Assembly: GCA_037903355.1 (NCBI GenBank)
Contig: JBAJFE010000020.1
Span: forward strand, 124,001-188,000
Reading direction: 5' to 3'
DNA: 64,000 bases
From: Trichuris trichiura
Taxonomy: Eukaryota > Nematoda > Enoplea > Trichinellida > Trichuridae
Part shown: in pieces, positions 1,412 through 24,259 of the stretch
Layout of the letters: each line of letters opens with the position of its first letter
Position numbering within the stretch: position 1 is the first letter of the stretch
Made by a program: the position numbers and the translations under genes
Notes under the pieces: model-generated
The model's input: the letters and a program-made list of their open reading frames with translations, nothing else
The model's database searches: none
Told to the model about the DNA's origin: nothing

Positions 1412-1454
1412 CTAAAATCAAGAAAAACAACTTTATTTCCAAAATAGGCGAAAG

Positions 1455-1691
1455 CGGTTTGTTGGATCTTCTACGGCTTTTCCCGTTCTTGTCTGCGTTG
1501 GTATCTGTAGTTTTAAACGAAACAATTGCTCTACCAACGGGTGGATGAGCGATTATTAGGAAAAATAGTACGGGACCAATACACTCAACTTTAATTTTCA
1601 GAGCTTTCGGAACGCTCTAGTTCCGTCGTCAGTGCCGTAGAAGATCTAACAAACCATAAAACATCAGCCCGTTACAAAACATCCTGCTCTC
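1455..1691 (-). mobile_element. FB-1 hairpin element, copy 1 (one arm deleted)
   Basis: This 237-bp insertion is flanked by a 12-bp direct repeat, AATAGGCGAAAG, at 1443-1454 and 1692-1703. Read on the minus strand it starts with the one-sided leader (contains GGATGTTTTGTAACGGGCTG), then GGTTTGTTAGATCTTCTACG. It then jumps almost directly to the right arm, which ends CGTAGAAGATCCAACAAACC. Nearly all of the left arm present in copy 3 is missing, as if the hairpin had been deleted. The right arm matches that of copy 3 (22842-23254) over its length, and the terminal stem is still self-complementary. It lies just upstream of the coiled-coil gene exons. It has no coding capacity. Confidence 0.8.
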
Positions 1692-1703
1692 AATAGGCGA
1701 AAG

Positions 1704-3600
1704 ATTACTTTACCGGTTATACGTTTCCTCCGGATCGTTTTGCTCCTGCAAAGACAATACGAAAAGATACTTAGGAAATGGGCAAGAAAAAATAAAACAA
1801 GTTTTTTACGGCAGAAGACTGTAATGGATCTGTTGAACTGTTTGGGCAGACTTCCATCGAAAAGGAGGGCGTACTAACAGCATTATCCACTTGTACATTG
1901 TCCGAAGGATACATATTTTTTTCTTTGGTCGCGCAAGGTGGACTGCATCCCAGCTAAAGCATTAAATCAAATGGCAATGGCTACTTTACTCCGGCCCATT
2001 GCAAATTATATACCAACTGTTTCCCTTCGCAGTGGTGAGACGGCAGTGACGATATCGCTTCGGCACGTTCTAACGAATGAGCCATATATGAGCAATAAGC
2101 GCTAAAAGTAGACGAACGCATTATATCTGTAGGTGCAACGTAACATCTCCAACATAATTACGCGTAATTATTAATTGAATATACGCTCAGATCAAATTCC
2201 TATAAACGGGAAGTTGGTAGCTTCCCGGAGGATAAATGGGCGCAGAAAACGGGCCTTCTGGGAGGCAGCGGGAACGTTTCGAGAATCTATACAAGCCGTT
2301 CCTATCTATATTATTTGTCTTGCGGCGAATTGTAACCCACAACGAGTCAGTTCGTGTTATCGTCGGAGGATGTATCGATCCAGCGGGGCTGATAAACGAG
2401 TCGGTAAGTCGAATAAAAATATAGTAATGCTTAAAACTATTTCAAAAGTATACTATAGTAAATGCCAGAAAACTGTCAGTAAATTCGCCATAAAAACTGC
2501 CCTAAAGCCGCCAACGAAAATCTCGGTAAAAGCGGTACGATAAATGACGAGCAAGTTTGAATTTACAGTACTCGTCAACCGCCAAAATGTCCGATTCTAA
2601 TGCTTGTTAACAAAGCACTATTGAGCAACTACTGTTGACGTTGCGCGAAAAAAGAAGTCATAAAATAGAATTTTAAATTAAAAAACCTTTTTTGCTTTTT
2701 TGTTAATTCAAATTCTTACCTATGAGAATTTATATTAGAAAAAATTTGAGGCTGTCCTATCAAGAATAACAACTGCATCTAATTTTGAACGACTTTGAAC
2801 CGGGGAATGCCGCCACTTTGCTTTAAGCGCAAAAAGGGCAGGACCGTTGTGCTGACAGGCGCTAGCGTCACGCTGACAGCATTGCAGTGTTCTTCTATTA
2901 ATAACTCAAAGCTCAAGTTGTGATAATAAGCTTCGATGTCCCATTTATTTACCTCAGCGTGCAAGAACGAAGGTCAGCTGACTGAGCAAACTATGCTTTG
3001 CCTAAGGAAAGTGCACACTAACGCATCAGCGCGAGACAATCGAATGACATCCGTTAGTTAGATGTGTGCAAATATTTTGCGCGTCAGTTGGAAATACGAA
3101 AATCACATTGCCACTTATCGCAGAACTGAAGCTACCTAATACGCCTGCCTAGAAAAGACAACTTTTTTAAAGTTTACAACGAGGTAAAGAATGAAGGAGC
3201 AACAGGTCACAACGTTTTTAAAACTAGTGCTCCTCCCAACCTATAGCAGTCCAGGTCTCATACGGCAAAAGAAAGAGAACTACCTAGCTGCTCATACTCC
3301 AACACTAGCGCATGCAGAAAATCGGTATTTCACTTTCTGTTTGGTTGGACAGGTTAATGCTTCTTACCGTTAGAGCTCGTTTGAGAACTATACCTTTGTG
3401 TCAAACATTGTAAGCCACTTCTGAGGGCAACATTTACAGCTGGAGACGCACTGAGCCTAATTCCAAGCCGCACCTATCGCACAGATCAAAAGAATGGACT
3501 CCTCTAAAGCTCAGCTAACGTTATGTGACAAAAACCGATCGTGCACTGAAAAACAGTATCGCGCGTTTACGATGCAGTTACAAAGAGCAAAAGCCGCATG
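1704..3600. other. Spacer with no recognised gene
   Basis: Short open frames occur here, for example 2175-2543 on the plus strand. They show no recognisable motif or splice context, and many start on non-ATG codons. The only structured content is the decayed coding-like repeat at about 2780-3030, listed separately. Confidence 0.5.
2779..3030 (-). repeat. Histone-spacer repeat (decayed coding-like family), copy A
   Basis: The minus strand carries GACCTTCGTTCTTGCA followed about 80 bases on by TATTAATAGAA. The same order is seen at 10845-10930 (plus) and around 8040-8150 (minus). The translated segment reads NKWDIEAYYHNLSFELLIEE, and the other copies read as related peptides with an LLIE core. 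The open frame 2779-2964 ends at a stop and has no convincing start. I read it as a fragment of an old dispersed gene or retroelement, family unknown. Confidence 0.5.
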
Positions 3601-3621
3601 CATCGTTGCATTAAATTTGGT

Positions 3622-3637
3622 GGCCCTGAAAAGGGCC
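3622..3637 (-). terminator. Histone 3' stem-loop of H2B
   Basis: Read on the minus strand the sequence is GGCCCTTTTCAGGGCC, a 6-bp stem with a TTTC loop followed by ACCA. This is the metazoan replication-dependent histone 3' processing signal bound by SLBP. It lies 34 bases after the H2B stop. Confidence 0.95.
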
Positions 3638-3671
3638 GTTTGGGGTCATATGGCAGCAATCGTGTTGCCGC

Positions 3672-4043
3672 CTATTTAGCGCTGGTGTACTTCGTTACCG
3701 CCTTTGTTCCTTCGCTGACAGCATGCTTGCTCAGCTCTCCAGGAAGCAAAAGACGGACGGCGGTTTGGATCTCTCTTGAACTGATCGTGTGTCGGTTATT
3801 GTAATGAGCCAGGCGAGATGCCTCGGCACCAATTCGATCGAACACGTCATTCACAAAGCTATTCATTATTGACATCGCTTTGCTACTGATTCCTGTGTCG
3901 GGATGAACTTGCTTGAGAACCTTGTAGATGTACGTAGCGAACGACTCCTTCCTTGACTTCCTTCTCTTCTTGTCTCCACCCTTTGTTACTTTTTGAGCCT
4001 TGCCAGCTTTCTTAACGCCTTTTACCACTGCCTTACCAGCCAT
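3672..4043 (-). CDS. H2B: Histone H2B
   Basis: An intronless 123-aa core histone. After a basic Lys-rich tail of about 30 residues it has the H2B histone fold: [19 protein letters not shown], then [27 protein letters not shown] and [18 protein letters not shown]. It ends AVTKYTSAK, with the usual ubiquitylation-site context. It pairs with H2A in nucleosomes. It is divergently transcribed from H2A across a 205-bp shared promoter and has its own 3' stem-loop, so S-phase expression is expected. Length is normal for invertebrate H2B. NRHTISS in place of the more usual KRSTITS is a minor variation. The start follows from the family N-terminus (MAGKAV). Confidence 0.97.
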
Positions 4044-4248
4044 GACAAACTAACCAAGGACTAATGAGAATTGCGCTTCCGACAGGACATTAAGTAGGCG
4101 AGGGGCAGGTAAACAGTTGAACGTTGACCAATCAGAGGTCGACTGCGAGCCAAGAGCGGTTGAGTGACATATTCACGAGGTTATTTAAACATTACGTTTT
4201 ATCAAAGGTCATTCATTGTCATTTGTTTGTTTGACGTAAGCTGACATT
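4044..4248. promoter_or_regulatory. Shared divergent H2B/H2A promoter
   Basis: These 205 bases separate the two divergent ATGs. They hold a CCAAT box (ACCAATCAG, 4127-4135) and, in the H2A direction, a TATA-like TTATTTAAA at 4181-4189 about 60 bases before the H2A start. A matching TATA for H2B is less clear; TACTTAATG on the minus strand near 4090 is a candidate. Confidence 0.65.
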
Positions 4249-4635
4249 ATGACTGGTCGTGGTAAAGGTGGAAAAGTGAAAGGCAAGTCGAAGAGTCGAA
4301 GCAGCAGAGCAGGATTGCAGTTTCCCGTTGGGCGTATTCATCGTTTGCTTCGACGAGGAAACTATGCTGAACGAATTGGAGCCGGCGCTCCGGTATACCT
4401 TGCCGCCGTCATAGAATACTTGACAGCTGAAGTTTTGGAATTGGCTGGCAATGCAGCTCGTGACAATAAGAAGACAAGAATCATCCCACGTCATTTGCAG
4501 TTGGCCATCCGAAATGACGAAGAACTGAGCAAGTTCCTCAAAGGAGTGACGATCGCTCAGGGTGGCGTGTTGCCGAATATTCAAGCAAGCCTTCTCCCAA
4601 AGAAAACTGAGTTGAAGGCTTCCAAGAAGGACTGA
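4249..4635 (+). CDS. H2A: Histone H2A
   Basis: An intronless 128-aa core H2A. The N-terminal tail SGRGKGG appears as [20 protein letters not shown]. The fold follows with [20 protein letters not shown], the acidic-patch region [38 protein letters not shown] and the docking domain [15 protein letters not shown]. It is a canonical H2A rather than H2A.Z or H2A.X: there is no C-terminal SQ[ED] motif and the L1 region is standard. [20 protein letters not shown] is near invariant. It is divergent from H2B and followed by its own stem-loop. Confidence 0.97.
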
Positions 4636-4663
4636 GAACCAGTTCTTCCATTTGACCCAAAAC

Positions 4664-4679
4664 GGCCCTTTTCAGGGCC
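4664..4679 (+). terminator. Histone 3' stem-loop of H2A
   Basis: GGCCCTTTTCAGGGCC, a perfect 6-bp stem with a TTTC loop, lies 28 bases after the H2A stop and is preceded by AAAAC. It is the SLBP/U7-dependent 3' end signal. Confidence 0.95.
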
Positions 4680-5297
4680 ACTAAATTGTACGCAACAGTG
4701 CGCGTAAAAAATTGGTACTCTGTTTAGTAATTGAACTCAAAGTAATCTACACGGTTAAAGAGCGCGGCGAAATTTTGATGTGAGTGATAAGGCGTCATTA
4801 TAAAATTTTTAAATTGCCCTTGCTTTATGTAAGGTATAGCGAATGCGCTATCGAATTTGATGCGATTAGTAGCCGTTGGCGTGGCTACTGGCGTAAAGGT
4901 GGTTTGTGTAACTTTGTAACTTGTAGTTCTAACAGAAATGCTTTGGTTCAGCAGAAGTACCGTTGGAGTGAGAACAATTTGAATGTCACGTGATCTGCCG
5001 TTCTTTATTTAACTAGAAACTGAACAAATAATTTCCGCCGAACTATGGAAAACTAGTCGTGTTTTCCGTTTGCATTTATAAGATAAAGGTCTTCGAGAAA
5101 TTAATGTAAACATCTGGATGTCCAGATGCTAATAGCACATTCAACGGAAAGCTATGCCCGTCAGTAAAGCGTGTGCACGTTAAAAAAATGTCCTTTGCAG
5201 CAGTGGACAGTTTGCAAAAATTATTCGATTGGCTCACTAAGCAAACTATACTAACGACAAATACGCGCATTTCCTGTTTTAGTACAGAATTGTCTCC

Positions 5298-5580
5298 CTA
5301 ACAGCTGTTATTTCCTTTGTCCGCAAGAACGTAGCGCACCTGGTCGACGGGAAATTCGATAAAGGTCGAATATGTTCCACTGTTACAATGGCGTCTACGC
5401 AAGTCCGTTTGACCTACGGCTAACGCTAGTGCCCTATTTTCTGGCTGTTCCTTTGTCTTAGACTGACGTGAACATCTGCTGAAGCGAACGCAAACATGTC
5501 TATGGCGTCTATCTTTTTCGGATTCTTGGCAACCATCCAAACATTCGTCGCAGCAGCTGCGTTTATCGGTCAAAGTAACA
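5298..5580 (-). repeat. Histone-spacer repeat (decayed coding-like family), copy B
   Basis: On the minus strand one frame reads NVWMVAKNPKKIDAIDMF and, further on, another reads FIEFPVDQVRYVLADKGNNS. Both align with peptides from the copy at 14062-14360 (NIWLIAKNSNKTDAIEL and YFPVEQLVSSLRNKSNNS). A shared DNA stretch, GTAGGTCAAACG, lies between the two blocks in both copies. The two peptides are in different frames here, so the copy is frameshifted. It is homologous to a real coding sequence somewhere, but I do not recognise the family. Confidence 0.5.
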
Positions 5581-5589
5581 ACAAACGCT

Positions 5590-7030
5590 CAGATAGTCCG
5601 ACTCTGCTCCGTAGCACTCCTTATGGTTACTGTATATTGCGAAAGTGACCGTTAGAGAAAGGAAGTTAATAAGCAAATCTCAGTAAAGTAAATGCCAAGA
5701 CGAGTTCGAAGAGGATCGTTTCTGAGAGTACGACTACAAAACTTTATGCCTGTTTTAAATTAACGCGTTGCAGAGATTAATTATTATGACGTATAGACTC
5801 TAGTTTCCTTTTTGGGCAATTTTTGGGCAAATGAAGTCATTTTCAATATCCTTTAATAAAGCAGCGTATATCCATCCTGCTGGTGGTCGTACCATTCATG
5901 TTGCCTTGCCCTGATCTAGCACCGCACACATCTTAGCAATAAATTAAAAAGGTTGTTCAATAAAACGGCAAAATCTTAAAGTCCGTCTTCTTTCCTGCAT
6001 TTATAGTTGCTTGGCAAAGTGTTCTTCTTCAGTTATCGTTTCTAGCAATCAGACGAAAGCCGCAACAAGCAAATCATGCAACTGAACAGTCCACAAAAGT
6101 AAAAAAGACAATAAACATTAAGCAGACTTTATTAAAAGGCCGATTTTGTGAAAAGGTACGCGCTCAGCGCAGTCAATTCTCTGGACGGATAGTGATCTTC
6201 AATTCAACATACAGGAGAACCTCCGTTACTCTGATTTTGGTTATCCAGATTACCTAAGAAGCGAAAATTTTAAAGATTGTACAAAAGGTTTCGAACTTTA
6301 AAGTGGGCTGACGCTACCTTATACCTCACACTTTCCACTCACAGGATGTTTCAACAGAATCCATGGAGCTGTGCTCGAAAAAGGGTGCTGCTCCGTCGTC
6401 CTACGTTACTCTCACAATGGGGCTACATGGTTCCAAAGCTATGTACGCTGTTTTCTTGAATTTTTTTAACAGTTTGTTTATCCATTCTTTGTTAGGGTAT
6501 TTGTTTTAATTTTTTTTACAGAGATAAGGACGAAAAAGGGGAAAATTCCTTGGAAAAATCAAATACGAAAACCTTTCACCCCCTTGCCAGACATCCAGTC
6601 TGTAATTCTATTTCATGCATAAAAACGTGTTTAAGAGATCAACTTTACGTCAAAATAACAAATTGCTATTTGATTTTGCTGGTTTTCAATTATTCCGATC
6701 CTCAGTTCTGCTTAGCCCGGATAATAGACCACTAGATCTGAAGAGTGAAGATTATATCAAAAAAGGGGGAAAAGCCGTAAAAGATCTTCAGAAACACGGT
6801 AATATCAAAAATAAGAGCTGTCGTCTGCTTTCTGCGCTGTACAAACACTTATAACGAATAAGTAGCCTTTGTGTGAACGACGCAGTGGCTCTTTTACTCG
6901 TATATGGTCGAAACCGTAACCAATAAACTTCTGGGTAAGGCGCTTATTCCGACTTAAATTCTGACTAACAGACTTCATTCTTGTTAATCGCTGACAATTG
7001 AATCAGGAGACACCTGAAAACTCTGCAAAT
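5590..7030. other. Spacer with no recognised gene
   Basis: The region is AT-rich with short frames, such as 6277-6459 and 6550-6854, that share nothing I recognise. No stem-loop, tRNA or coherent splice pattern is visible. Confidence 0.5.
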
Positions 7031-7036
7031 TTAGTA

Positions 7037-7222
7037 CAGTAGAACCTCTGAAGTTGACCACCTCTCTATGTCGACCACCTCCCTAAGTTGACCGACTTTT
7101 GACCACTTGGTTGGTCCGCACGTCAATAATATAATATACCCACAGCCTCTTATGTTGACCACCTCCTATGTTGACCTGTTTTTCCCGGTCCCTTGGGTGG
7201 TCAACTTATGGAGGTTCTACTG
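7037..7222. mobile_element. Tigger/pogo-type MITE
   Basis: A 186-bp non-coding element with inverted ends, CAGTAGAACCTCTGAAGTTG at the left and its complement (CATAAGTTGACCACCC reading inward) at the right. It is bounded by TA on both sides (7035-7036 and 7223-7224). The interior repeats GTTGACCACCTC-like units. A CAG...CTG terminus with a TA target is typical of the pogo/Tigger superfamily. It is non-autonomous. Confidence 0.8.
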
Positions 7223-8019
7223 TATATTCACTCCTATAGAAAGCACTTTGGTCACATAAGTAATTTTCGGTTTGAAAACTAATCTTTGATTTTGGAGTTC
7301 GCAATGCTCTTTACGGCTCAACAGTTCGAACTGGTCGTGATCTCCACGTGTGTTCGGAAGCTTGTTCAAATACACCTTCGGCTCACAGACCGTAATAATC
7401 TGGACTTTATACTCTTTCTTTTAGCGTCGTCTAAGCATTTAACCGGGTAATTTGGTTGAATGAATCAGTGTTCCCAATCCCTTCAGTTATAGCAGTCTCG
7501 AACTCGCTGTTTTGAAGTGAATTTTGAACAGGAAAAACGCAGTATCTGGAAAGCGACGCTTTTCATTCAACTTTACACATTCAATTACTGAGTCAACTCG
7601 ATAAAAAGAAATCAAGGCTGCACATTGTGACTTTGCTAGCATTATTGCCAACCAAATGCGTTGCCTCTAAGTTGATTTGCATTCCGCAGATAAGCCGTCC
7701 GGTCGCAAAGTTTTTGTATTTGCGTTAAGGCAAGCAGCCGTCGGAAGAGCAATCTGTTATCATTACTGACGCGCTTGTGCTGACTGCCGTGCCGGTTAGT
7801 GGCTAGCACGAAGTTGAAATTCCAAACTTTTTCAAACCGTCCTGTGCTATCTTATCAATACGGTGCACAAAGCTGGAGAAACCTTAGCAGCACTTTTGCC
7901 TCCTCACTTTGCATTTACATTATTAGTATTCGTTTGGAAACCATTGAAACACGAAACTGGGCAATAGCGATTCTAGAAGCTCATTGGAGTTGTTTTACGA
8001 CCGCATCGTTTGACGAACG

Positions 8020-8330
8020 ACCTGCGCAGATCATCATCAATTGAACAGTAGTTTCCCGCTGTTCCATAATGGCATTCTATTAATAGTTCCTTGTGAGATA
8101 CGTTACAAAGCTCAATTTGTCGACCTTAGCGTTCAAGAATCAAGGTCAACATGTAATTGTACCAATGCAAACTCGTACGGATGCATGCATGATCAGCAGA
8201 TTCAATCCAGTCAGAGCTGGCATTTCATTGTCATTTCTAATGACCCACAGTTGTTCAGACGCTTTCGAGCAGGTCATAGCGTCTGAAACGTTTGAATTCT
8301 TGGCAATAAGCCAAGGGTTTGTCGCTGTAA
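8020..8330 (-). repeat. Histone-spacer repeat (decayed coding-like family), copy C
   Basis: The minus strand encodes NPWLIAKNSNVSDAM, close to the NIWLIAKNSNKTDAI of the 14-kb copy. After about 130 bases it carries GACCTTGATTCTTGAACGCT and TATTAATAGAATGCC, matching copies A and D. This copy therefore links the two motif blocks in the order WLIAKN block, then LLIE block. Stops interrupt it. The 142-codon plus-strand frame over the same bases (8093-8521) starts on GTG and is probably a shadow. Confidence 0.5.
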
Positions 8331-9174: not shown

Positions 9175-9516
<342 letters not shown>

Positions 9517-9551
9517 GCGGTTGCTGCATGCGCAGCTTTTTGACCCCAAAC

Positions 9552-9567
9552 GGCCCTTTTTAGGGCC
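9552..9567 (+). terminator. Histone 3' stem-loop of H4
   Basis: GGCCCTTTTTAGGGCC followed by ACCA lies 35 bases after the H4 stop. The loop is TTTT rather than TTTC, and the stem is identical to those of the other three histone genes here. Confidence 0.92.
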
Positions 9568-9619
9568 ACCAAATTTTGTTGACGCAAACTGCAATCTGCT
9601 ATAATTTGCGCGCGTAAAA

Positions 9620-11580: not shown

Positions 11581-11590
11581 AGATCAAATA

Positions 11591-13462
11591 CAGGTAGTTC
11601 TCGTATAACGCGTGTTCATATAACGCGTTTTCGCTCATACGCGATTTCGCCAGCTGGAAAGCGTGGGCGTATGGCAAAATCTCCCCGTGTTTTCATCCAC
11701 CGAGAGCAAACAAAGGCCGCGCTGTTAGCTTATGCGCGTTCTTCGGTCACGAACAAGCGAAATGTGACAAAAACGTTTAGGATTCTTAACGGAAGTAGTG
11801 TCCGACTCAGCTGTGCACAATGCGATATGCATACTCAAACAGGCTACTGATCGGTATTCATGTTCGGTGGAGTAATTCGCGCCGGCAGGAAAATGTGTAC
11901 AGACGACGTTTCCATTTTCAATTCTCCCGAAGCGCAGGCATCGTAGACGTTTTCCAGTGAGTCGTAGTACGCTAGCACAGAATTCGGAAAGCATTCTCAC
12001 TGTCTGATTGCGAGCTCAATTCGTAAGTATTTTGTCTGATTCCGCGATCTGAGGATACCCTTTAAGTATCTGAAAATGTCTAAGCTTCCTGATTCGAAGT
12101 CAGCTGGTAGTGGTCGAAAAAGAAAGGCGCTGACTGTTGGAGAGAAACTTGAGATACTGAAACGGTATGAACGGAATGAGACGACACGTGATATCGTCAA
12201 AGCTACTAGCATAAAGGAATCAACCTTGCGGACCATTAGGAGCGACGCGGAAAAAATTAAACAGACTTGCGTAAGCGGTACCAGTTCAAGTATTGCGATG
12301 TCAATAAGAAGAAGGCCTAAGATACTGGAAGAAATGGAAAAACTACTCAGCATTTGGATCGAAACTCAAACGATGAAAAGAATAGGAACAACGTTTTTCA
12401 CCATCAGACAAAAAGCAGTTGCCATTTACGAAGACCTTAAGAAACAGTCTACAAATCCTACTGAAATTCCTCCATTTACTGCTAGTAGTGGTTGGTTCTG
12501 CCGTTTCAAGAATCGATACAGTTTTCACAATGTTCGTCTCTGTGGCGAAGCAGGAAGCGCGAACGTCGATGCCGCGCAAACACTTCCAATAGAAGTACAA
12601 AACTTGGTCAAAGAAAAGGTGACCACCGAGGAGCTGCAGGAACTTTCTGTAGCAGGGGAAGCAGAAGGAAAAGAAGATGATGAAAATCAGGAAATTCCTC
12701 CGCCGCCTCCTCGACAAATGACCACTGCTGAGCTGTCAGATACCCTGAAGACTATAGAACAGCGTTTACAATGGCTCGAAGACAATGATTGTAACGCAGA
12801 ACGCAGCGGGAAAACCACAAGAGGTATCCGAGCTTGTTTGGAGCCATACAAGCAGCTGCTGTACGAAAGAAGTACACGTGCGAAACAAAAGAAGCTCGAA
12901 TTCTACTTTACTACAATGAAGAAACATTGTGACAATGAGGAAGCGCTACCTTCTACATCCAATAGGACCTCAGTTCGCCCGTAACAAAGGATAGTGAGAT
13001 TAAAAAAGTGAGTCCAACGGAAATCCATTCTTTCCTGGGTATGAGGTCGTTTATTTTAGTACTGAGAGGGACTCTTTCCACAAACTAAAGATGCAAGCCC
13101 GCCGCTCCTGAAAGCCAGTTTGAACTCTGTCCGCTGTAAAGAGCTCTATCATAAAAGCTCTGCCGTTAACGTATGATCGCCGTAAAAGATAATGTTATTC
13201 AGACCCCGTGTAAGAGAATCCATACGTCAGCGTGCCTAACGGCAGAATACAGTAGCTCAAGTACATCATAGTTCCTGTTTCAACCCAGCTTATTTAAGAT
13301 ATCTCTCCGTTGTTGCTTACAAGTAAACAATCCTTTTGACGCTTTGAACCAAATCGTGATTTTGCTATACTTTACATGTCTCCTATAACACGATTTCATA
13401 TAACGCGACATTTTTCAGGATTTTTAAGTGACCAGACGCTCGCGTTATACGAGAACTGCCTG
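11591..13462 (+). mobile_element. Tigger-like DNA transposon, internally deleted
   Basis: An 1872-bp element with inverted ends CAGGTAGTTCTCGTATAACG (left) and the same with one change, CAGGCAGTTCTCGTATAACG, at the right read inward. TA flanks both sides (11589-11590 and 13463-13464). The ATAACGCG unit is repeated inside each end, as at 11618 and 13400. It contains one long ORF (12076-12984). A full Tigger would be about 2.5 kb; the catalytic core appears to be missing. Confidence 0.88.
12076..12984 (+). CDS. Tigger/jerky-type DNA-binding protein lacking the DDE domain
   Basis: An intact 302-aa ORF in the Tigger-like element. Residues about 14-70 are a CENP-B/psq-type helix-turn-helix (KRKALTVGEKLEILKRYERN, then SIKESTLRTIRSDAEKIKQ). 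Residues about 90-155 match the second CENP-B-type HTH (W-x-E...TMKRI, then FTASSGWFCRFKNRYSFHN). The DDE_1 catalytic domain that should follow is absent: the text passes directly to an acidic, Pro-rich linker (EGKEDDENQEIPPPPPRQ), then a C-terminal segment like the tail of jerky-type transposases. The product could bind Tigger ends but not cut them. It could be a deletion derivative or a repressor-type protein. Confidence 0.7.
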   Translation: MSKLPDSKSAGSGRKRKALTVGEKLEILKRYERNETTRDIVKATSIKESTLRTIRSDAEKIKQTCVSGTSSSIAMSIRRRPKILEEMEKLLSIWIETQTMKRIGTTFFTIRQKAVAIYEDLKKQSTNPTEIPPFTASSGWFCRFKNRYSFHNVRLCGEAGSANVDAAQTLPIEVQNLVKEKVTTEELQELSVAGEAEGKEDDENQEIPPPPPRQMTTAELSDTLKTIEQRLQWLEDNDCNAERSGKTTRGIRACLEPYKQLLYERSTRAKQKKLEFYFTTMKKHCDNEEALPSTSNRTSVRP

Positions 13463-13731
13463 TAGTTAACCTCTGGGCAATTCGATCATCGCAGATTATG
13501 CATTTGATCATTCCAGCATAGTCCATTTCAGCGATACAATTACTGCGGTAGATTAACCACTGGAACGAATCCTTTCCATAAAAGTGCAATTTTAGTTTCG
13601 CTGAGGTTCAAGCAAGCCCAGTAATCGGTTGGATAAAGCTTTTAAGGTACAAGTTTCCACAATGAAGAAATTATTCCAATGAATCTTATCTGCTCATAGC
13701 AATGTCTCCCTATATCATTTCTTCGGTTTTC

Positions 13732-13907
13732 GAACACTGGGTGCTTTGTAACGGGATGGGATTTCACAGTGTATAGTCTTCTACGGCTTTTCCCGTTTAT
13801 CTGTTGTGCTTGTATCTGTAAATTAGACGAAATACAAGCAGATTCGTCTAATCTACAGATACAAGCACAACAGATAAACGGGAAAAGCCGTAGAAGACCA
13901 TACACTA
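13732..13907 (+). mobile_element. FB-1 hairpin element, copy 2 (short arms)
   Basis: The insertion is flanked by a 13-bp direct repeat, TTCTTCGGTTTTC, at 13719-13731 and 13908-13920. It begins with a one-sided leader (TGGGTGCTTTGTAACGGGAT), then arm AGTGTATAGTCTTCTACGGC and onward to about 13832. A 10-base loop is followed by the complementary arm ending GCCGTAGAAGACCATACACT. The arms are about 63 bp and nearly perfect. Copy 3 has arms about 180 bp long, so this copy keeps only the distal part of the stem. Confidence 0.82.
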
Positions 13908-14061
13908 TTCTTCGGTTTTCTCGTTATTTTGTTACTGTTACAGAAGCTTTCTCTATTTTTTTTTATTTTTCAGTTGTCAACGCGCTTGAACAGCTTAGGA
14001 AAGGTTATCACATAGCGGAAACCAACCATCTAAGCGATTATTATCTCGTTCATCAGCAGAT

Positions 14062-14540: not shown

Positions 14541-14969
<429 letters not shown>

Positions 14970-15002
14970 GGAGACAAAAGTCTCCTTATTTTGACCCCAA
15001 AC

Positions 15003-15018
15003 GGCCCTTTTCAGGGCC
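15003..15018 (+). terminator. Histone 3' stem-loop of H3
   Basis: GGCCCTTTTCAGGGCC followed by ACCA lies 33 bases after the H3 stop. Stem and loop are identical to those of H2A and H2B, which argues that this divergent H3 is still a processed histone gene. Confidence 0.95.
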
Positions 15019-15029
15019 ACCAAATGGTT

Positions 15030-17990
15030 TCAATTGCAACTTAGCGGCGGCAGCAATTCGCCGAGTAATTTTCGCAAATCAAGGACCCATTTGTTCAACA
15101 GAAAAGCAGCATGAACGTAGCCTTGTTAATTGTAAGAAATGCATAAGCGGCTGACTAAGTCGTCAGGGCGAAATCTGTGGTAGCTTGTAGGTCTTTTATT
15201 CCGTCCTACGTTGGAAGTTAGGCTAATTGTGTGTGCTATAGCCGGTGTCGGCGCTTTTTCGTGGCAAGCATACGGTCATTCTGTTGCGCTAGTATTCGAG
15301 GTCAGGTCGGCTGTTTTGTACAACGCTTACCTAACCCTAAGGAAATATAAACCTGATGTTTAGTCTTCAGCTTAGTTAACGCCAGAACAGGGTGGCCTGC
15401 AAACTTACAGTAGGAAAGTTGGTCCCGTAGTTACATTTTTAACAAATTACTGAATTCGCAGAGGAAGAAAAAGTTAGCTTTTGTTCTTGCTAGATATTCC
15501 CTTAGCATAGACTTCTTATTACTGTACTGCCCCACTGACTAGAAAACTGCGAATTACGTGCTGAGCTGCGCTTTGTTGTGCGCCCACCGCTTACCTGGTT
15601 TTGCGCTGTAAGCCTAAACCAAATAATTCTTACGTTTACGCACAGAACTCCAGGTAAGGGCAGGACATTTACTGTGTGACGGTTAGGCGGTTTACGAGAT
15701 CGGATCCTAACGATTTTCAAGTGTAATCTCACAACCGCATCTGTGCCGCCTTAATGAAATCAGGGGAAGCGCTTATAAACGAAATTCTGGGTAACTAAAT
15801 TCCTCTCTTGTTTTCCGTTCCTTTTACTTTATCTTTTGTAAAGTCCGTTTGCCGAATACGTTTGTAAATGTACGATAAGTCTAAAAGTTGAATCCACAGC
15901 AAAAATTGGACTTCATTTTACAAAAGCACTTTGCGTACGTGTGTTTCAAAGCTTTCAAGCACTTCTTGGCTATTTCTTGACAAATGCTTTCCAAACGCAA
16001 CAGCCGTTTTGAAGCAAGTTCTTTCTTGCTCCTCAAGCCGTTCCACAGGAGTTTCCAAGCATTGAGGAGTTTTACTGTATAGAAGCAACTTCATATATTT
16101 TTTTACTTTATCATCTTGATCAGCTTCCAGATGTTCGTTAAAGCCAACTAATCATATTTCCATATCAGTATTGTCACATACATCCGATACTAAGACATCT
16201 CTCAATGTTCCTAGGATGTCAGCTATTTCGTCACGAGCATTGATTTCGCCAGAACTTTCACCCGTCCTTTTAAACTTACGCATTTAGTCTTCGTACTGAA
16301 CGTTCACGCTAACTACAATGTTGACGCAGCCTAGTCTGCTGCAGAAGGAACGGAAGTTCCGCTCGCCGCTTCTAATGTTAATAATGTAAATGTATGTATA
16401 TGGTTACAACGTTTACAGTTGATGAATTTGCTATTTTAAGAAACATTCGATTTGCGTTTATAAAATAGCTCCAGCCGTCCTAAGCACTTTCTTTCTATAA
16501 AAACTCACTTCCACTTTTGCAACGGCAGCAGAAAATCCTTTTTACATTGCTGCTGCTGCTCGTTCGAAAAACTCGATGAAATACCTTGCTGTTCTGGTTA
16601 TTCGAGCTACGAAAGGGCTAAGGTTATGAAAACCTGCGCATCAATTAGAAATAGCAATGTGCTCAAAGATGAGAAACGCATGGTTACGCTTCATGGAAGC
16701 CGCAACAGCACCAACCAATAGCTGAATTTTGAACTTATGCCTATGAAATTACGAGCACCATGTGTGACTACCTCTTTTCATAATCATTAATTTTACGATG
16801 AAATAAAGAAAAGAAAAACACTGAAATTTAGTCTTCAATGTCAGAACACGGGTGTGTTGGAGCCATGATTTACATCTTAATTTTTCAGCAATTTAGTATG
16901 CCCTCCTCTTTCCAAAATGCAATAGACAGAACCGCTAGGTTCTACTGAGATTCGGGGGCCTATTTGTCACTAACGGGAAGGCGTTGACAGCCCAACGGAA
17001 AATGTTCCATTGCAAAGTCAGGACGCGTTGACGTTATCTTTCTTCTCTAGGAGCCAATGAAAAACATGCTTTTACACTCCCTCCTGCCCGGTATGCTTCT
17101 AAAAAGTCTCTGTGCATGGCGTGCTTCTAAAAAGCCCTTGGCCTATCGGTAGGGAGCAGTTCCCAGAAATGAGTTCCATCTGCACACCCTTTTATCAACC
17201 CATAAAATCTTGTTATTCTATTCCTTCTCGTGCAGTGCAAGAAGCGCCGTGCCCTTCAGTTTTTGCGAACGGAACTTCAGAACAACTCATTCCATCCGAC
17301 CGTTCGTAACACAATAGCAGCCGGTAATATATTCCCATACGTACGGCTTTTCCGTCGCACATTCTCCACTTTTTCCCTCGACTCATAAAGGCGCCGACTC
17401 GTAGAAGCGTACCCTTCCATTCCTTTCTCCCTGGTATGCGCTGAACAAACAGCATTTATAGTGGTCCTTTTCTATTATTCACGCGGACTCTGGGCGGCGC
17501 GATAGGAGCGGCCAAAGCAAGAAAGCTGTGGGCACTAACAGACAAGGTCTTCTGTCCAAGTGAGAGCGCGCGCGTCAGTCAGTCATCTCGGTCTTTCGTT
17601 CCTCCGTTGAATTGCTGGTATTAGTTGCTGTACTCGACTGCTGAAGTGGTCATTTTGTGCTGACCGTCTTCTACAGTATTCGCCCTTCGTCACAGGCTCA
17701 CGTAAGTGAAATCATTTGTACAACATTATCAAAATGCATTAGAAAGGAACGGGTACCTAGTAAGTAGGCGCGGTTGCTGAGGTTGTAATTTGGAAGCAAT
17801 TATCGGTTCTATTCCTAAGGAAGTGTAGTAGACGAAACAGGAGTTGCGCAGCAGCAAATGCGAGGAAAGAAGTCTTGAAAAACGGACCCTCAGTGGTCAT
17901 TTCACGTTTGCTACCGTAACAGTATTAGTATTGGCCAAGGAACTGCAATTGCAGTGCGCTCAATTCGCCATTTGGAAGAAATAAATTTTT
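15030..17990. other. Long stretch with little recognised content
   Basis: Apart from the broken reading frame at 15921-16283, the short frames here show no recognisable domain. A GC-rich stretch at 17480-17600 (GGCGGCGCGATAGGAGCGGC, then GAGCGCGCGCGTCAG) precedes the hAT coding region and may be its 5' untranslated part or promoter. The 5' terminal repeat of that hAT was not located. Confidence 0.45.
15921..16283 (-). pseudogene. Unrecognised reading frame with one internal stop
   Basis: From an ATG at 16281-16283 the minus strand reads about 120 codons with a single TGA after about 44 codons. The composition is protein-like and mostly helical (INARDEIADILGTLRDVLV, then VERLEEQERTCFKTAVAFGK and EVLESFETHVRKVLL). 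The frame continues smoothly on both sides of the TGA, suggesting one nonsense change in a once-coding sequence. Family not recognised; a transposase tail is possible. Confidence 0.35.
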
Positions 17991-18002
17991 ACAGATTGAA
18001 CC

Positions 18003-20192
18003 ATGTCAGAAAGCAAGAAAAAATGCAGGCAGTACAATGCTGAATATTTTAAGTATGGTTTCGTTGCGTCGCCTGGTAACATGCAGGTTCCGATGTGTCT
18101 GTTATGTGAGAGGGAGTTTTCAAATGAGTCGATGAGACCCTGTAAGATGGTCAAACATGTGTACAATATGCATCCAGATGAAGCCAACAAGAATCTGGCG
18201 TATTTTCAATCGCTCCACGAAAGCTATCTCAGGCGCCCCAGATTAGAAACATCGTTTCCATCGACGTCGAGAACGCGACAGCACGATGGCCTGCTTGCGT
18301 CGTATAATATTTCTTTGCTGATTGCGAAAAGCGGTAAAGCGCATACCATTGGAGAAGAACTTCTGATTCCAGTAATAAGCGAAGTATTTAACACAGTATT
18401 ACATATACCTGCTGCAGACGTAATCAAGAAGGTCTCCCTCAGTAACGACACTGTCTAGCGTTGTATCGATGATATGGCTGCGGATGTAGAGCAAACGCTG
18501 TGCGAGTTTCTAAAAACCACGCAATTCTCGCTAGAACTTGACGAGTCCATCCTACCCGGCAATGAGGCTCTCCTTTTGGCCTATGTACGATTCATAAAAA
18601 CGGAGCAAGTAGTTCAGGAAATGCTTTTCGCGAAGGAATTGATAACTGACACGAGAGGGGAATTGATTTTCCTTGTCCTAAAAGACTTCTATGAGGAAAA
18701 GGAAATACCGCATTCGAATATAACCACAGTAGCTACTGATGGAGCGCCGGCGATATCGGGAAGGCAGCGTGGCTTCATTGCGCACTTAAAGCAAGTCGTG
18801 CCGGATATCGTCGCGGTTCACTGTGTGATCCATAGAGAACATTTGGCAGCAAAGCGTCTCAGCAATTGGCTGAATTCTTCGTTACAGTTAGTAATAAATG
18901 CGATCAACAAAATCAAAAGCAATCCGCTCAATGACAGGTTGTTCAGACAGTTGTGCGAGGAAAGCGACGCAGAATACAAGCGTCTGCTCCTGCACACCGA
19001 GATGTGATGACTTTCAAAGGGCGCCTGTCTTACGCGCGGCTTTATTGCCTTTTCGAAGCGGTTGTAAAACTTCTCGCTTCTCACGACAATGCCTTGTGTG
19101 AAAACCTGAAGAGACGTGAGTCTGACATAGCCTACTTAGCAGATTTGTATTTTAAGTTCAATGAAATGAATCTTCTCCAGGGAGACGAACTTAATCTAAT
19201 CACGACAAGAGCTGCTGTGTGCGGGTTCGTTAGGAGAAACTCCCTTTGTTCAGGCGTAATTTGGCACGTAGAGAGCTAGGCCAGTTTCCAAACCTTTGCG
19301 CCTTGCAAAAAAAGGTGGAGATCAAAGATGACGATGTCGAAGCCTACTGCCAGCACCTAGACATGCTGCACCATGATCTTTCCGCATGGTATGAGGATAT
19401 TCTTAGCATGGAAGTGCCAAGCTGGGTAACTGACCCTTTTTCGGCCGCGGAGCTGGAACTACAGGAAGAACTCGTGGAACTGCTGGCAAACGAAGAATTA
19501 AAGGTGAAATTTTCAAAGAATGGCTACCAAGCCTTCTGGCTCCAACGAGGCATTGCAGAATCATAGCCAGGCTTATGGAACATCGCGCGCAAATTGCTGC
19601 TCGCCTTTCCTTCGACATGTCTGGCTGAAAGGGGCTTTAGCGTGGTCGTGGACCTCCTGACGAAAAAGAGGAACCGATTGCAAATAGCAAAGCGAGGAGA
19701 CCTGCGACTGCGCGTCACTAATTTCAAGCCGAACGTCCAGCAGTTAGTTTTGTCGCTGCAAATCCAGCCGTCGCATTAGCCATTTGCTTATTCGGCGATA
19801 CATAGAGGTGCCATAAAGCTATATATAGGAATTGCATTGCCCTTTTCCATGAACGCAGTCCAAGCTCTTGCGAACGGTAATAAAGCCGGAAAACGGATAC
19901 AACAAGCGCCGGCAACTTTTCCGCAGCGGAAGAAACACCAGTCAACGTTGCAGGTGCTGAGCGAAGATCAGGTGAACTACAAGCATGCGCTTTTCGCTTG
20001 ACCACTGCGGACCGTCAAACATAACTGTAAGGTCGCTACACAAGATCAACGGGCGCCTGCCATGCGTCCTGTCCGTGTTGGAGTATAAAGGACTAATCAG
20101 CGTTGATCAAACCGTCCTGCGCCATCTGGGGGCCCTGGTGGGCCCTGACAAGGCCTAGAGAACCGTGGGGCAAAAAAGGTTGAGAAACTATG
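18003..20192 (+). pseudogene. hAT (Buster/ZBED-like) transposase, decayed copy 1
   Basis: Coding runs 18003-19779. A BED-type zinc finger opens it (CLLCEREFSNESMRPCKMVK, then HVYNMHPDE). It is followed by the hAT core (FSLELDESILPGNEALLLAY, TVATDGAPAISGRQRGFIA, HCVIHREHLAAKRLSNWL, INKIKSNPLNDRLFRQLC) and the C-terminal dimerisation region (CLAERGFSVVVDLLTKKRNR). In-frame stops break it at 18456 (TAG), 19005 (TGATGA, where the family has Arg-Trp before LSKGAC) and 19564 (TAG). A frame change lies near 19240. The 3' end at about 20192 carries a hAT-type terminus, GTTTCTCAACC on the minus strand. The 5' end is not identified. It is non-functional. Confidence 0.85.
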
Positions 20193-20357
20193 CTATAATC
20201 CAACGGTTTATAATTTATCGATCTATTTCGTTGCCTGTTAGCGACAACTTGAAAATATGAACTCGCGCGTGCTTGAAAAAACGATTGAGTCCATTTGAAA
20301 AGAAGAGCTTGCTGAGATTTGTAGATAATCAATGCAATATAACATGTCGCTTTAGGA

Positions 20358-21610
20358 CACTGTTTCTCAAGCGGAAGGCCGTTTGGGCCCACTGAGAACG
20401 TTTCCGAGCGTCTGGGCCCCCTATTCTGATTGGCCAATTTCGAGAGCACTGATTGACGAATTTCAGTGCACTGAATAGCTAAAACGGTTGCAACGCTAGA
20501 AGGTCAACTACAGCTGTACAGATTTATTACTGCAAACTGTTTTTCGAGAAGTCAGCGAGAGCTGCTTGGCTCGCCCTGATGCGGCCGAACAAGCCTGTCG
20601 ATGTTGGGCTCGATCGAGGTACAGCCGACTGCGTTTCTTCGTCACTAGGTTCGTAACGATACTAAATGCGTTCTCGACTAGACTCGATGAGGGAAGACAA
20701 ATCAGTAACTTTTTTACCACACCCCATACGTCAGGGTACAAATCCTGGATTTCTTTCTGCAGCCAGAGCTGCTGATAACCCTGTGACAACCCGGCCTTCA
20801 ACTCCACGTTCGACTGCAACTGCAGCAGCTCTTGCTGCAGCGAGATCTCCTCGTCGTCTAAATTTGTTAGCGGATTGATCACCCAGTCTGGGATCACCAA
20901 AGACAAAATGTCATGAAAACGACGTGCGAAATCGTCGTGCAGCACTTGGAGACGCTCACAGTACAATTCCACATCCGCTTCAGAGATCCCACCTTCGTTT
21001 TCTGTTTGGGCGAGATTTTGAAACTGGGGAACTCACCCCTTGCAAAGTTGCGCTTGAACTAAAGCAGCTTTAACATGAACGCAGAGATAACGGATTTTGT
21101 TTTAATCAAGTTAAGGTCGTCCACCTGGAACTATTTATTCATCTCATTAAATATAAAATACGATTCCGTTAAGTACGCGATGTCCGCTTTCCGATTACGC
21201 AAGTTTTCGCTCAGCGAAGCATCCTCCTGTTCAAAAAATTGAAGAACGGATTCGTACAGGACGAAAAACCTCGACAGGCAGGCACCTTTTGATAGCCATT
21301 TGACTTCTATGTGCAGAAATAGACGACTGAAGTCTTCGTTATTGTCATCACATAGTCGTCGAAAAAGTCTGTCACTGAGTGGATTACTTTTGATTTTGTT
21401 TACAGCGTTGATGACATACCGAAGAGATTCATTCAAACGTGGAATCAAACGACGGGCTACGAGACACTGCCAATGCAACACACAATGGATGCACAGCACG
21501 TTGGGAACCATGAGTTTTAGATACGATATGAATCCCCGATGACAGCTGAGCATAGCTGGTGCACCATCTGTTGCCACGGCTATTATGTTCTGAAGGGAAA
21601 TTGCTTTTCC
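20358..21610 (-). pseudogene. hAT (Buster/ZBED-like) transposase, decayed copy 2
   Basis: It faces copy 1 tail to tail. Its outer end at 20358 reads CACTGTTTCTCAAGC on the plus strand, matching the terminus of copy 1. The coding parts on the minus strand are 21577-21131 (ATDGAPAMLSCHRGFISYLK, CIHCVLHWQCLVARRL, EVKWLSKGACLSRF) and 20972-20508 (VIPDWVINPLTNLDDEEIS, then SSSLVENAFSIVTNLVTKK). Stops and a frame change separate them. Everything upstream of the GKAISLQNIIAVATDG block is lost where the FB-2 half element begins at 21611, so the BED finger is missing. Confidence 0.83.
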
Positions 21611-21762
21611 ATAAGTTGAATCAACTTATAACCGCTGAAGATGGGTGTCGTTCGACCCGAAAGCTCCGGAGAAATAAACGTTTTTTCGACGGGACTTGGA
21701 CTCCGTAATTAAAATCAATTCAGTGTGAAAAAATGTTGTCCCGTACCAAGACTCCATATAAT
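21611..21762 (-). mobile_element. FB-2 hairpin element, half copy
   Basis: Read on the minus strand this has the one-sided leader ATGGAGTCTTGGTACGGGAC, then the arm beginning GAATTGATTTTAATTACGG and GAGTCCAAGTCCCGTCG, down to the loop region TTATAAGTTGATTCAACTTA. It then runs straight into hAT copy 2 coding sequence. The second arm, present in the full copy at 49777-50021, is missing. Arm and leader match the full copy almost base for base. Confidence 0.75.
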
Positions 21763-22734
21763 CAGTAAACGTTATATAATAAACGGTTAAAAACAGTAAA
21801 ATGTTTTTCAAAATTGAAAAGACCCAACGCAAACCAGGCGAACAGCAGCTCGCACTCGCTAGCGCCGGCGCTACTCTGACAAAAAGCAATATGCCTAACT
21901 GCTCTAGCAAGGTCACTGTCTCCGGAAGAGACGGTTGCAGCCATACAAGCAGACGCTGAGTACTTCTCGCACGTCACGGGAAGCAAGACTAGAATACAGT
22001 CAGCCTGAGCACTTGTCAACGAAAGCTGCAACTCCTTCAACCCTACACTGCCAACATTAGAAGGACGCGGGAGCATAGCGGTTGTTCAGACGAGCACGGA
22101 GGCAGCTGCGCGACGTCCGTTTTTACAAAACAATTGCAAGGCAGTACGCAACGGTCGGCCTTTTCGCCAACAACGGACCCAAAGTACGGATGCTAGCGGG
22201 CGTGGACTGCCGCAGGCACGCTTGAATCGAAACAGAAGCGCCCACCTTTCTCCGTAGCACCGCCGTTAACCTAGGCGTCAACAACGAGATCCTTCCCAGC
22301 CAGCCGAAATAGTTAATTGCACTGCCCACTGCTGTAGGCAGCATTGTGCCCAAAGTAAATTGCAACATAGCAGCAGGAAGTGAACGTCAAATTCCAACAT
22401 GTCGCTTCAGTGGCACACAATAATGCTTTTTCTGCGGCTGTTAAACAAAAACAGTGACTAGTGCTTATCCTTACAATCCCATGGTTGAATCAGTCACCTG
22501 GAGACAAACAGCGACGTTTCGATTACGATTCGCCTGCTGTACGGTTCCGTCAGCATTTTCACCGGCATTATCCGCCAAGGAACGTACATGAACAAACGCG
22601 CATGCATAAAAGTTGAGGAAATGAACGCTTGGCAAACACTGTGCGCGCAGCTGCAACGAAGAAGAGGAGAGATTCAGAGTCCCGTAATGCTCCATCTTTC
22701 ACCATTTCCTGGTGGAATCAGCCGTTCAGCGGAG

Positions 22735-22741
22735 TATAAAA
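22735..22741 (+). promoter_or_regulatory. TATA box of the Kunitz gene
   Basis: TATAAAA lies 47 bases before the ATG at 22788, a good position for a short-leader gene. Confidence 0.6.
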
Positions 22742-22787
22742 GAGAAGAGCGGACCGCATCAATCACGCTGCCATTTCGGTTACAGCA

Positions 22788-24259
22788 ATGGAAACGAAGC
22801 TCCTGTACGCAGCACTCCTTTTCTTCCTACCAGTGGCCATGAAAACGGGGTGTTTTGTAACGGGCTGTATTTTCATGCCTGTAAGGTCTTTTACGGCTTT
22901 TCCCGTTTTCGTTGTGCTGTTATCTGTAATTAAACTAAAACAACTGCTCTACCAACGGATGGATGAGCCGTTATTAAGAAAATGTACAGATATCAATACA
23001 CTCAACTTTTTTAATGTTCAAAGCTTTCGGAACGCTCTAGTTCCGTCGTCAATGAGGTGGTGGAGCTACCACCTCACTGACGACGGAACTAGAGCGTTCC
23101 GAAAGCTTTGAACATTAAAAAAGTTGAGCGTATTGATATCTGTACATTTTCTTAATAACGGCTCATCCATCCGTTGGTAGAGCAGCTGTTTTAGTTTAAT
23201 TACAGATAACAGCACAACGAAAAACGGGAAAAGCCGTAGAAGATCTTACAAGCATACCAGTGGCCATGTTGGAAACATTGGACCGAGGAGTGTCCGCTGG
23301 TAAGTGCAAGTGAGATAGCTCAATTCGGAAAGTCACTAATCGTACTTGCAGCCGCTGACCAACGCGAGCGCAAAGATCCATCCGTATGTCAACTTTAACC
23401 AGACGCTGGACCATGCAATGCAGCACATCGCCAATGGTATTACAACATTACCTTAAAGGAATGTGCACTGTTCGTCTACGGTGGCTGTCAGGGCAACGGG
23501 AACAGATTTGAAAAGAAGGGAGCCTGCACCAGACTTTGCGTCATGGTCGGAAAGAAGAATCCGTGCAAACGGCCCTTGGACGTTGGCCTAGGTGTAACCT
23601 TAATACAAAGATACTACTATGTTGAAAACCTGGACGAGTGTCACTTCTTCATTTACGGAGGATCCAAGGGAAACGAAAACAATTTTGAGACGCAACAAGA
23701 ATGCGAAGCAAAGTGCCTCAAGGATAAAATGAAGAGTCCGTGCCACCAGCCCTTGGACCTTGGCCGAGGTATGGGTGTAATACTTAGATATGCCTATAGT
23801 CAAGAGCTGGACGAGTGCCACTTCTTCCAATACCGAGGAGATGGGGGGGACGAAAACAACTTCAAGACGCAACAGCAATGCGAAGCAACGTGCGTCAAGC
23901 AGCCAAAGGAGAATCCGCGCAGACAGCCCTTGGACGTCGGCCTAGGTATGGCCTCATTAGTTAGATACTACTATGTTCAAGACCTGGACGAGCGTCACTT
24001 CTTCCTTTACGGAGGATCCAAGGGAAACGAAAACAACTTCAAGACAAGGCAAGAATGCGAAGCAAGATACGTTAGAGTGCCAAAAGCCTGGTCTCACCTT
24101 GTAGCGGAACCAACCGAGGACGCCTCTTTCAAAAAGGTGCTGCCAACATCATCACCGTCATCGTCGCGTCGCCCTGATGTGCCACCAACTGACGATAACC
24201 TTTTGAGAACGGACTTGCCAACAGCACACAGTTACCCCCCAGCGATCCCCCAAAAATAA
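22788..24259 (+). pseudogene. Secreted multi-Kunitz protein, disrupted
   Basis: Exon 1 starts METKLLYAALLFFLPVAM, a signal peptide. The FB-1 element splits it at 22842-23254, after which VAMLETLDRGVSA continues. A 52-bp intron (23300-23351, GTAAGT to TGCAG) leads in frame into exon 2. Kunitz domain 1 starts VCQL, meets a TAA at 23396-23398, and then continues in the same frame (PDAGPC, then YGGCQGNGNRF to CTRLC). Domains 2 and 3 keep Cys1, 3, 5 and 6 but lack Cys2 and Cys4. Domain 4 has also lost Cys1, Cys3 and Cys6. A Ser/Thr/Pro-rich tail ends at 24259, followed by AATAAA at 24278. Serine-protease inhibition is the family role; this copy looks dead. Domains 2-4 remain one open frame from 23543, so a truncated product cannot be excluded. 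Confidence 0.8.
22842..23254 (+). mobile_element. FB-1 hairpin element, copy 3 (full palindrome)
   Basis: A 413-bp insertion flanked by a 14-bp direct repeat, TACCAGTGGCCATG, at 22828-22841 and 23255-23268. Order: one-sided leader (AAAACGGGGTGTTTTGTAAC, then GGGCTGTATTTTCAT); left arm GCCTGTAAGGTCTTTTACGG and onward about 180 bp to TGACGACGGAACTAGAGCG-type sequence; a very short loop GGTGGTGGAGCTACCACC at about 23055; then the complementary arm ending CCGTAGAAGATCTTACAAGC. The arms are nearly perfect over their whole length. It interrupts the signal-peptide exon of the Kunitz gene. Confidence 0.88.

What the first reader, a model, noticed from the sequence alone, without database searches (positions are those of the whole stretch)
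1443..23268. FB-1: a palindromic mobile element with a one-sided leader and 12-14 bp target duplications
Three insertions (1455-1691, 13732-13907, 22842-23254) share a conserved leader of about 35 bases on one side only, with core TGTTTTGTAACGGG, followed by an inverted repeat of variable arm length. Each is flanked by a different perfect direct repeat: AATAGGCGAAAG (12), TTCTTCGGTTTTC (13) and TACCAGTGGCCATG (14). One copy is in the opposite orientation. TIR DNA transposons normally have matching ends and a fixed short duplication. Variable 12-14 bp duplications and an asymmetric end suggest target-primed reverse transcription of a hairpin RNA, or fold-back copying, rather than cut-and-paste. 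I know of no named family with this layout.
Basis: partly seen in the sequence, partly recalled or inferred. Interest (0 to 1): 0.87.

Follow-up and report, generated by a model that had tools for sequence, protein, structure and literature searches.

The report
Penelope retroelement's short palindromic insertions
The three odd palindromes are short insertions left by a Penelope-like retroelement in a whipworm-like genome, and their shape suggests that this element copies its messenger RNA onto both cut strands of its target, starting at two different sites.

Summary
The three insertions, the one-sided leader and the 12/13/14-bp duplications are as described, and paralogous sites without the insertion hold one copy of each target. 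The leader-plus-arm pattern occurs 210 times in the genome, 0 in the reversed control.

It is not an unnamed family. Longer copies with the same ends carry a Penelope-like reverse transcriptase and a GIY-YIG-like motif. The leader is the known one-sided Penelope "tail": antisense of ORF codons 1-13 (MKIQPVTKHPVFK). The arms are pseudo-LTRs (pLTRs). FB-1 is two pLTRs joined head to head, without the ORF.

Possibly new: 28 of 28 arm pairs picked without regard to tails have exactly one tail. One cDNA thus starts about 38 nt inside the ORF, the other near its ATG. All 49 short elements have different inner joints, and 34 of 98 arms stop 30 nt below a TATA box.

Best model: target-primed copying of the mRNA 5' region on both target strands, then end joining. 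Fold-back copying of one cDNA cannot make 20 of 49 short and 5 of 6 long copies.

The parts
1443..1454 (.). Copy A, left target duplication AATAGGCGAAAG
   Evidence: single copy in paralogous site L094
1455..1655 (-). Copy A, body: almost complete pLTR joined to a 22-nt piece of inverted pLTR
1656..1691 (+). Copy A, tail; the + strand reads as a degenerate ORF start (ATA AAA CAT CAG CCC GTT ACA AAA CAT CCT ...; IKHQPVTKHPAL)
1692..1703 (.). Copy A, right target duplication
13719..13731 (.). Copy B, left target duplication TTCTTCGGTTTTC
   Evidence: single exact copy in paralogous site L089
13732..13767 (-). Copy B, tail (antisense of the ORF start; close to the family of L083)
13768..13907 (.). 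Copy B, two truncated pLTR 3' parts head to head (64-nt arms, 11 nt between)
13908..13920 (.). Copy B, right target duplication
22828..22841 (.). Copy C, left target duplication TACCAGTGGCCATG
   Evidence: diverged single copy in L091-L093
22842..22876 (-). Copy C, tail (antisense of the ORF start MKIQPVT...; family of L080)
22877..23254 (.). Copy C, inverted pLTR and direct pLTR joined at the inferred mRNA start (left arm stop +0, right arm stop -4, 2 nt filler)
23255..23268 (.). Copy C, right target duplication
6758..6793 (+). Probable remnant of a pLTR 3' end (GGGAAAAGCCGTAAAAGATCTTC)
   Evidence: similarity only

Best explanation
FB-1 elements are ORF-less insertions of an endonuclease-bearing Penelope-like retroelement (PLE). 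The element's protein cuts both strands of an AT-rich target in a staggered way, and each cut end primes reverse transcription inside the PLE mRNA near the start codon. On one strand copying starts about 38 nt inside the ORF, which gives the tail; on the other it starts about at the ATG, so there is no tail. Both cDNAs run towards the mRNA 5' end, and a third of the arms stop at one place, the probable transcription start. The inner ends are then joined, with microhomology or filler, into two head-to-head pLTRs, and filling the stagger gives the 12-15 bp duplication. Full-length copies need a longer read-through RNA with a second pLTR-ORF junction. Shown from sequence: PLE identity; tail = ORF start; one tail per insertion; two start zones; unique joints; stop cluster below a TATA box; single-target empty sites. 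Inferred: priming on both target strands, run-off at the mRNA 5' end, the joining pathway, the read-through origin of long copies.
For: Long copies with the same two ends carry RT and GIY-YIG-like coding sequence; full-length L080 and L081 have the layout tail - partial inverted pLTR - pLTR - ORF - pLTR. Tail is coding: 41 of 50 distinct tails keep ATG, minor-allele frequency 0.05/0.07/0.22 at codon positions 1/2/3. Starts in 55 of 56 TSD-resolved elements: ATG+29 to +41 on the tailed side, ATG-10 to +5 on the other. One tail exactly in 28 of 28 tail-blind pairs (25 by exact pattern, their other ends checked; 3 with a mutated tail core read). Stops within 2 nt of CTCCACCACC: 34 of 98 arms, densest other 5-nt window 6 of 98; TATATAA starts 30 nt upstream in L080. 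49 of 49 joints differ; 33 have filler, 9 of the 16 others overlap by 3 nt or more against 5.9% of random joints. Tailless arm longer by more than 5 nt in 20 of 49 and in 5 of 6 long copies. Purified anole PLE protein cuts and extends both strands and starts RT at two sites that bound the tail (PMC11167929, passages).
Against: The anole enzyme showed no difference of start site between strands, whereas here the two sites are used one per side. Arms of one copy are alike more often than independent templates would give (28 of 31 concordant, 15.1 expected), so two RNA molecules are shown only for 3 of 31. The gap between start zones in the 55 elements is partly by selection: they were found by their tail, and the TSD search reached only 45 nt past the pLTR motif. 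23 of 79 tail ends have no detected TSD. The transcription start is inferred; no RNA data. Pfam did not call GIY-YIG in this ORF.
Confidence: 0.75

Rival explanations
1. Self-priming: one cDNA (or an antisense RNA) folds back at its 3' end and copies itself, giving the palindrome. This was proposed for palindromic joints of rotifer Penelope elements, on an antisense template.
For: Arms of one copy are usually concordant (28 of 31); 9 of 16 filler-free joints lie in overlaps of 3 nt or more; published proposal (PMC3846280, discussion section). In 13 of 49 short copies the tailed arm is longer and in 16 of 49 the arms are within 5 nt, which this model allows.
Against: Only the tailed arm could be the template, as the other lacks the tail. 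But the tailless arm is longer by more than 5 nt in 20 of 49 short copies and has element sequence missing from the tailed arm in 5 of 6 long copies (L019, L056, L072, L073, L080; L062 is a composite and was not used). 3 of 31 copies have arms of different haplotypes.
Confidence: 0.12
2. A palindromic master copy is transcribed as a hairpin RNA and spread in trans by the PLE enzyme, like a SINE. The antisense transcript of such a copy would end in pLTR plus tail, so it could be a template.
For: An antisense transcript of FB-1 would carry the sense pLTR-tail at its 3' end, and a one-sided tail would be inherited (inference).
Against: All 49 short elements have different joints; the perfect joint word GGTGGTGGAGCTCCACCACC is found at only 2 places in the genome with up to 1 mismatch.
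Confidence: 0.05
3. A non-autonomous TIR DNA transposon (MITE or fold-back type) moved by a transposase.
For: Inverted repeats and target duplications.
Against: The ends do not match (exactly one tail in 28 of 28 pairs); TSD length varies, 11-16 bp in 34 exact cases outside simple repeats; the long relatives encode a reverse transcriptase.
Confidence: 0.01

Closest known systems
Penelope elements of the rotifer Adineta vaga, e.g. Pen2a_Av (PMC3846280; passages and the discussion section read)
   Same: ORF between two direct pLTRs, an adjacent inverted pLTR, a 31-bp tail on one inverted pLTR, tail reading as ORF start, TSD, GIY-YIG endonuclease; palindromes at inverted joints; foreign sequence between solo pLTRs noted.
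   Different: TSDs there are 8-10 bp in the passages seen, here mostly 12-15. ORF-less head-to-head pLTR pairs are the main product here (49 of 55 usable elements under 700 bp); I saw no such class described. Self-priming was proposed there; it is not general here.
Poseidon PAc of the anole lizard (PMC11167929; abstract and passages read)
   Same: RT starts at two internal sites near the ORF start that bound the tail; protein cuts and extends both strands; AT-rich targets.
   Different: In vitro; no strand difference in start site and no pairing of the two sites reported in the passages seen; hammerhead ribozyme overlaps the ORF start, none called here.
Metazoan retrozymes (PMC7229834; passages read)
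   Same: Short non-autonomous elements, TSDs longer than 4 bp, PLEs suggested as the mobilising machinery.
   Different: Tandem repeats with canonical type I hammerhead ribozymes and circular RNAs; FB-1 is head-to-head, inserted singly, and no hammerhead was called.

Membership tests
Penelope-like elements (endonuclease-bearing) | Reverse transcriptase of the PLE type | tested here: met
   RVT_1, E 1.9e-11; 1073 related proteins, best 120 listed, led by Trichuris. PLE type is judged from shared motifs and layout; no tree against named PLE clades was made. A PDB profile search reached telomerase RT only weakly (E 0.0077).
Penelope-like elements (endonuclease-bearing) | GIY-YIG endonuclease domain after the RT | tested here: inconclusive
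   Motif VVYELRCGCNASYIGETGNTLLHRYGQH aligns with relatives P0045 and P0049 that carry PF01541, but Pfam does not call it in this ORF at E up to 5.
Penelope-like elements (endonuclease-bearing) | pLTRs, direct and inverted | tested here: met
   L080 and L081
Penelope-like elements (endonuclease-bearing) | 30-40-bp tail on one end, equal to the ORF start | tested here: met
Penelope-like elements (endonuclease-bearing) | Variable target duplications in AT-rich DNA | tested here: met
   34 exact TSDs outside simple repeats: 11-16 bp, mode 14; GC 34% in TSDs and 38% in flanks against 40-47% along the window
Penelope-like elements (endonuclease-bearing) | Hammerhead ribozyme in the pLTR (common, not universal) | tested here: inconclusive
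   No Rfam hammerhead (E up to 10; up to 5) or 49 (up to 10); a hammerhead-like core CTGACGA..GAAAGC can be read by eye, its 3' half cannot
TIR DNA transposon / MITE | Matching ends and a fixed short TSD | tested here: not met
SINE-like spread of one palindromic master | Copies share the internal joint of the master | tested here: not met
   49 of 49 joints different

The most novel reading that the evidence does not exclude
PLE integration is an obligately asymmetric two-sided reaction. A paired enzyme starts one cDNA at the outer internal site on one target strand and a second cDNA at the inner site on the other strand, and the two are joined end to end; no conventional second-strand synthesis crosses the joint. 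The inverted pLTR and the one-sided tail of PLEs in general would be the footprint of this reaction, and ORF-less head-to-head pLTRs its default product, because both starts lie near the mRNA 5' end.
Probability: 0.5. Interest if true: 0.72.

Novelty: new variant of a known kind. Interest (0 to 1): 0.55.

Why it matters
How Penelope-like elements complete an insertion is open: the 2024 in-vitro study calls the later steps yet to be validated (PMC11167929, passage) and the 2013 paper proposed self-priming (PMC3846280). A genome with hundreds of small insertions, many flanked by intact target duplications, offers hundreds of natural end-points. One tail per insertion and a unique inner joint in each turn the question into a prediction that the existing purified enzyme could test. 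It also explains the partial inverted pLTR and one-sided tail of PLEs, and warns annotators that MITE-like palindromes can be retroelement products.

Tried and rejected
The DOP1-like ORF found no homologue at E<=0.001. Rfam miRNA and sRNA matches on the palindrome are all below gathering score and taken as chance hits to a hairpin.

Searches used references that ran into palindromic sequence and gave false arm ends; redone. Arm distances (own right arm nearest, ties allowed, in 16 of 31) had little power because copies are young; diagnostic sites were used instead; the 31 copies are those of 48 with both arms over 100 nt. One row (L029) was dropped before the start and stop counts for a poor right-arm alignment; six long elements were left out of the joint counts. 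In one search, 44 of 100 listed arm ends had no exact partner within 4 kb and were not counted (15 with a tail, 29 without by exact pattern). The TSD search reached 45 nt past the pLTR motif, so it could not itself find two-tailed insertions; bear on that. One search found inverted tails downstream in 3 loci (L015, L080, L083), read as a neighbouring insertion and as internal pLTR-ORF starts.

Literature: I saw no account of ORF-less head-to-head PLE insertions or of paired starts in the listings, or in the passages read and the one section read. The Trichuris + Penelope search gave 31 papers, 20 listed, by title all on infection surveys or trials. One search was a wider Trichuris listing, not read. 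Two relevant papers are not held.
Full report
Check of the observation. The three insertions, their identical flanking repeats of 12, 13 and 14 bp, the one-sided leader and the opposite orientation of copy A are as stated; the core in copy B has one mismatch to the stated word. The leader followed by the arm word occurs 210 times in the 72.7-Mb genome (the window is on contig C51), 0 times reversed; the arm word alone 359 times, 0 reversed.

Uninterrupted sites. The flanks of all three copies have paralogues without the insertion in the same genome. Aligned, they show one copy of the target: exact for B in L089 and A in L094, diverged for B in L090 and C in L091-L093. The repeats are true target duplications and the borders are right.

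What it is. I read 70 loci around tail hits and a few more. Of 48 elements with a first-pass TSD, 47 have a leader overhang of 32-45 nt and 42 are palindromic to the centre. Four longer ones, 933-2859 bp, have the same two ends, and L019, L072 and L073 hold RT or GIY-YIG-like coding sequence. The RT part matches RVT_1, and the best-scoring relatives are Trichuris suis and T. muris proteins (1073 hits, 120 listed, best identity 65%). The GIY-YIG-like motif aligns with relatives annotated PF01541, though Pfam does not call it in this ORF. L080 and L081 read: tail, partial inverted pLTR, pLTR, ORF, pLTR. That is the published layout of a typical Penelope copy, with its optional 31-bp tail on one inverted pLTR (PMC3846280). 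The RT has 96 matches in the genome, a lower bound.

The leader explained. In L080 and L081 the pLTR is followed by ATG AAA ATA CAG CCC GTT ACA AAA CAC CCA GTT TTC AAG = MKIQPVTKHPVFK. The leader is this stretch in antisense; the core TGTTTTGTAACGGG is antisense of Pro-Val-Thr-Lys-His codons. Of 50 distinct tails 41 keep the ATG, and change is concentrated at third codon positions (mean minor frequency 0.052, 0.066, 0.22). A family 64% alike in its RT begins MKLFKPVKRHPVFRNI.

Starts. Among 79 distinct tail ends 56 could be given a TSD and 55 were usable: the tailed side starts at ATG+29 to +41, the other at ATG-10 to +5. This set was chosen by tail and the TSD search had limited reach, so the gap is partly by construction. 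The unbiased test: in the first 100 listed places of the arm word I paired opposite arms within 4 kb, without regard to tails. Of 28 pairs 25 had one tail by exact pattern and none two. The other ends of these 25 were checked: 24 meet the TSD 3-15 nt after the pLTR motif, and the 25th (L012, read in L082) also ends without a tail. The 3 others were fetched and each has one tail with a mutated core. So 28 of 28 have exactly one; if the ends chose freely at even odds, about 4e-9. In vitro the anole PLE protein cuts and extends both strands and starts RT at two sites bounding the tail, without a strand difference (PMC11167929).

Stops and joints. In the 49 short elements (under 700 bp) 15 tailed and 19 tailless arms stop within 2 nt of CTCCACCACC; one or both do so in 27 of 49. 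TATATAA begins 30 nt upstream in L080, so this is probably the mRNA start (inferred). All 49 joints differ; 33 hold 1-165 nt of filler, and of the other 16, 9 overlap by at least 3 nt against 5.9% of random joints.

Why not fold-back. Only the tailed arm could be the template. The tailless arm is longer by more than 5 nt in 20 of 49 short elements; the tailed arm is longer in 13, and 16 are within 5 nt. Of 6 long elements, 5 (L019, L056, L072, L073, L080) have element sequence on the tailless side that the tailed arm lacks; L062 is a composite and was not used. Three of 31 copies have arms of different haplotypes. Against full independence: 28 of 31 are concordant where 15.1 would be expected, so the arms usually come from RNA of one source, perhaps one molecule. 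Fold-back in a subset is not excluded.

Model. The PLE protein cuts both target strands, and each end primes copying of the mRNA near the start codon: outer site on one strand, inner on the other. Both copies run to the mRNA 5' end and are joined. As the ATG lies 190 nt from the inferred mRNA start, the default product is a palindrome of about 420 bp. Long copies would need a read-through RNA with a second pLTR-ORF junction. Priming on both strands, run-off at the mRNA 5' end and the joining pathway are inferred.

Limits. The loci come from the first contigs of capped lists and mostly from one subfamily; 23 of 79 tail ends have no detected TSD; no RNA data; species not named; PLE clade not placed on a tree.

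Noticed in passing
window 49772-50021 and 21617-21762: Another palindrome (arms 49813-49905 and 49929-50021) and a related single arm at 21617-21762. An extension (…TTGGTACGGGACAA…) seems to lie on one side only, so this may be a second PLE-type family; no clear target duplication seen by eye.
   Followed up: partly
window 27004-27208: A third, unrelated palindrome (81% complementary arms, 23 nt between) with a hammerhead-like CTGAGGA stretch near its centre.
   Followed up: partly
window 22828-23268 beside 23543-24259: Copy C appears to interrupt the first, signal-peptide-like exon of a gene just upstream of an ORF with three Kunitz domains; at least nine paralogous matches of the flanks elsewhere in the genome, eight spanning the target.
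   Followed up: partly
window 28366-32933 and 12076-12984: A 4.6-kb nested inverted repeat with a DDE_1 ORF in one arm, and a Tc5/CENP-B-type DNA-binding ORF elsewhere: pieces of pogo/Tc5-like DNA transposons.
   Followed up: no
window 58406-60097: Another large nested inverted repeat, about 1.7 kb.
   Followed up: no
window 3598-3642 (-), 14998-15044 (+): Histone 3' stem-loops beside histone-fold ORFs; copy B lies in this region.
   Followed up: no
G000, RT matches: A second PLE family, about 64% identical, has dozens of matches of nearly equal score with open frames, suggesting a recent burst.
   Followed up: partly
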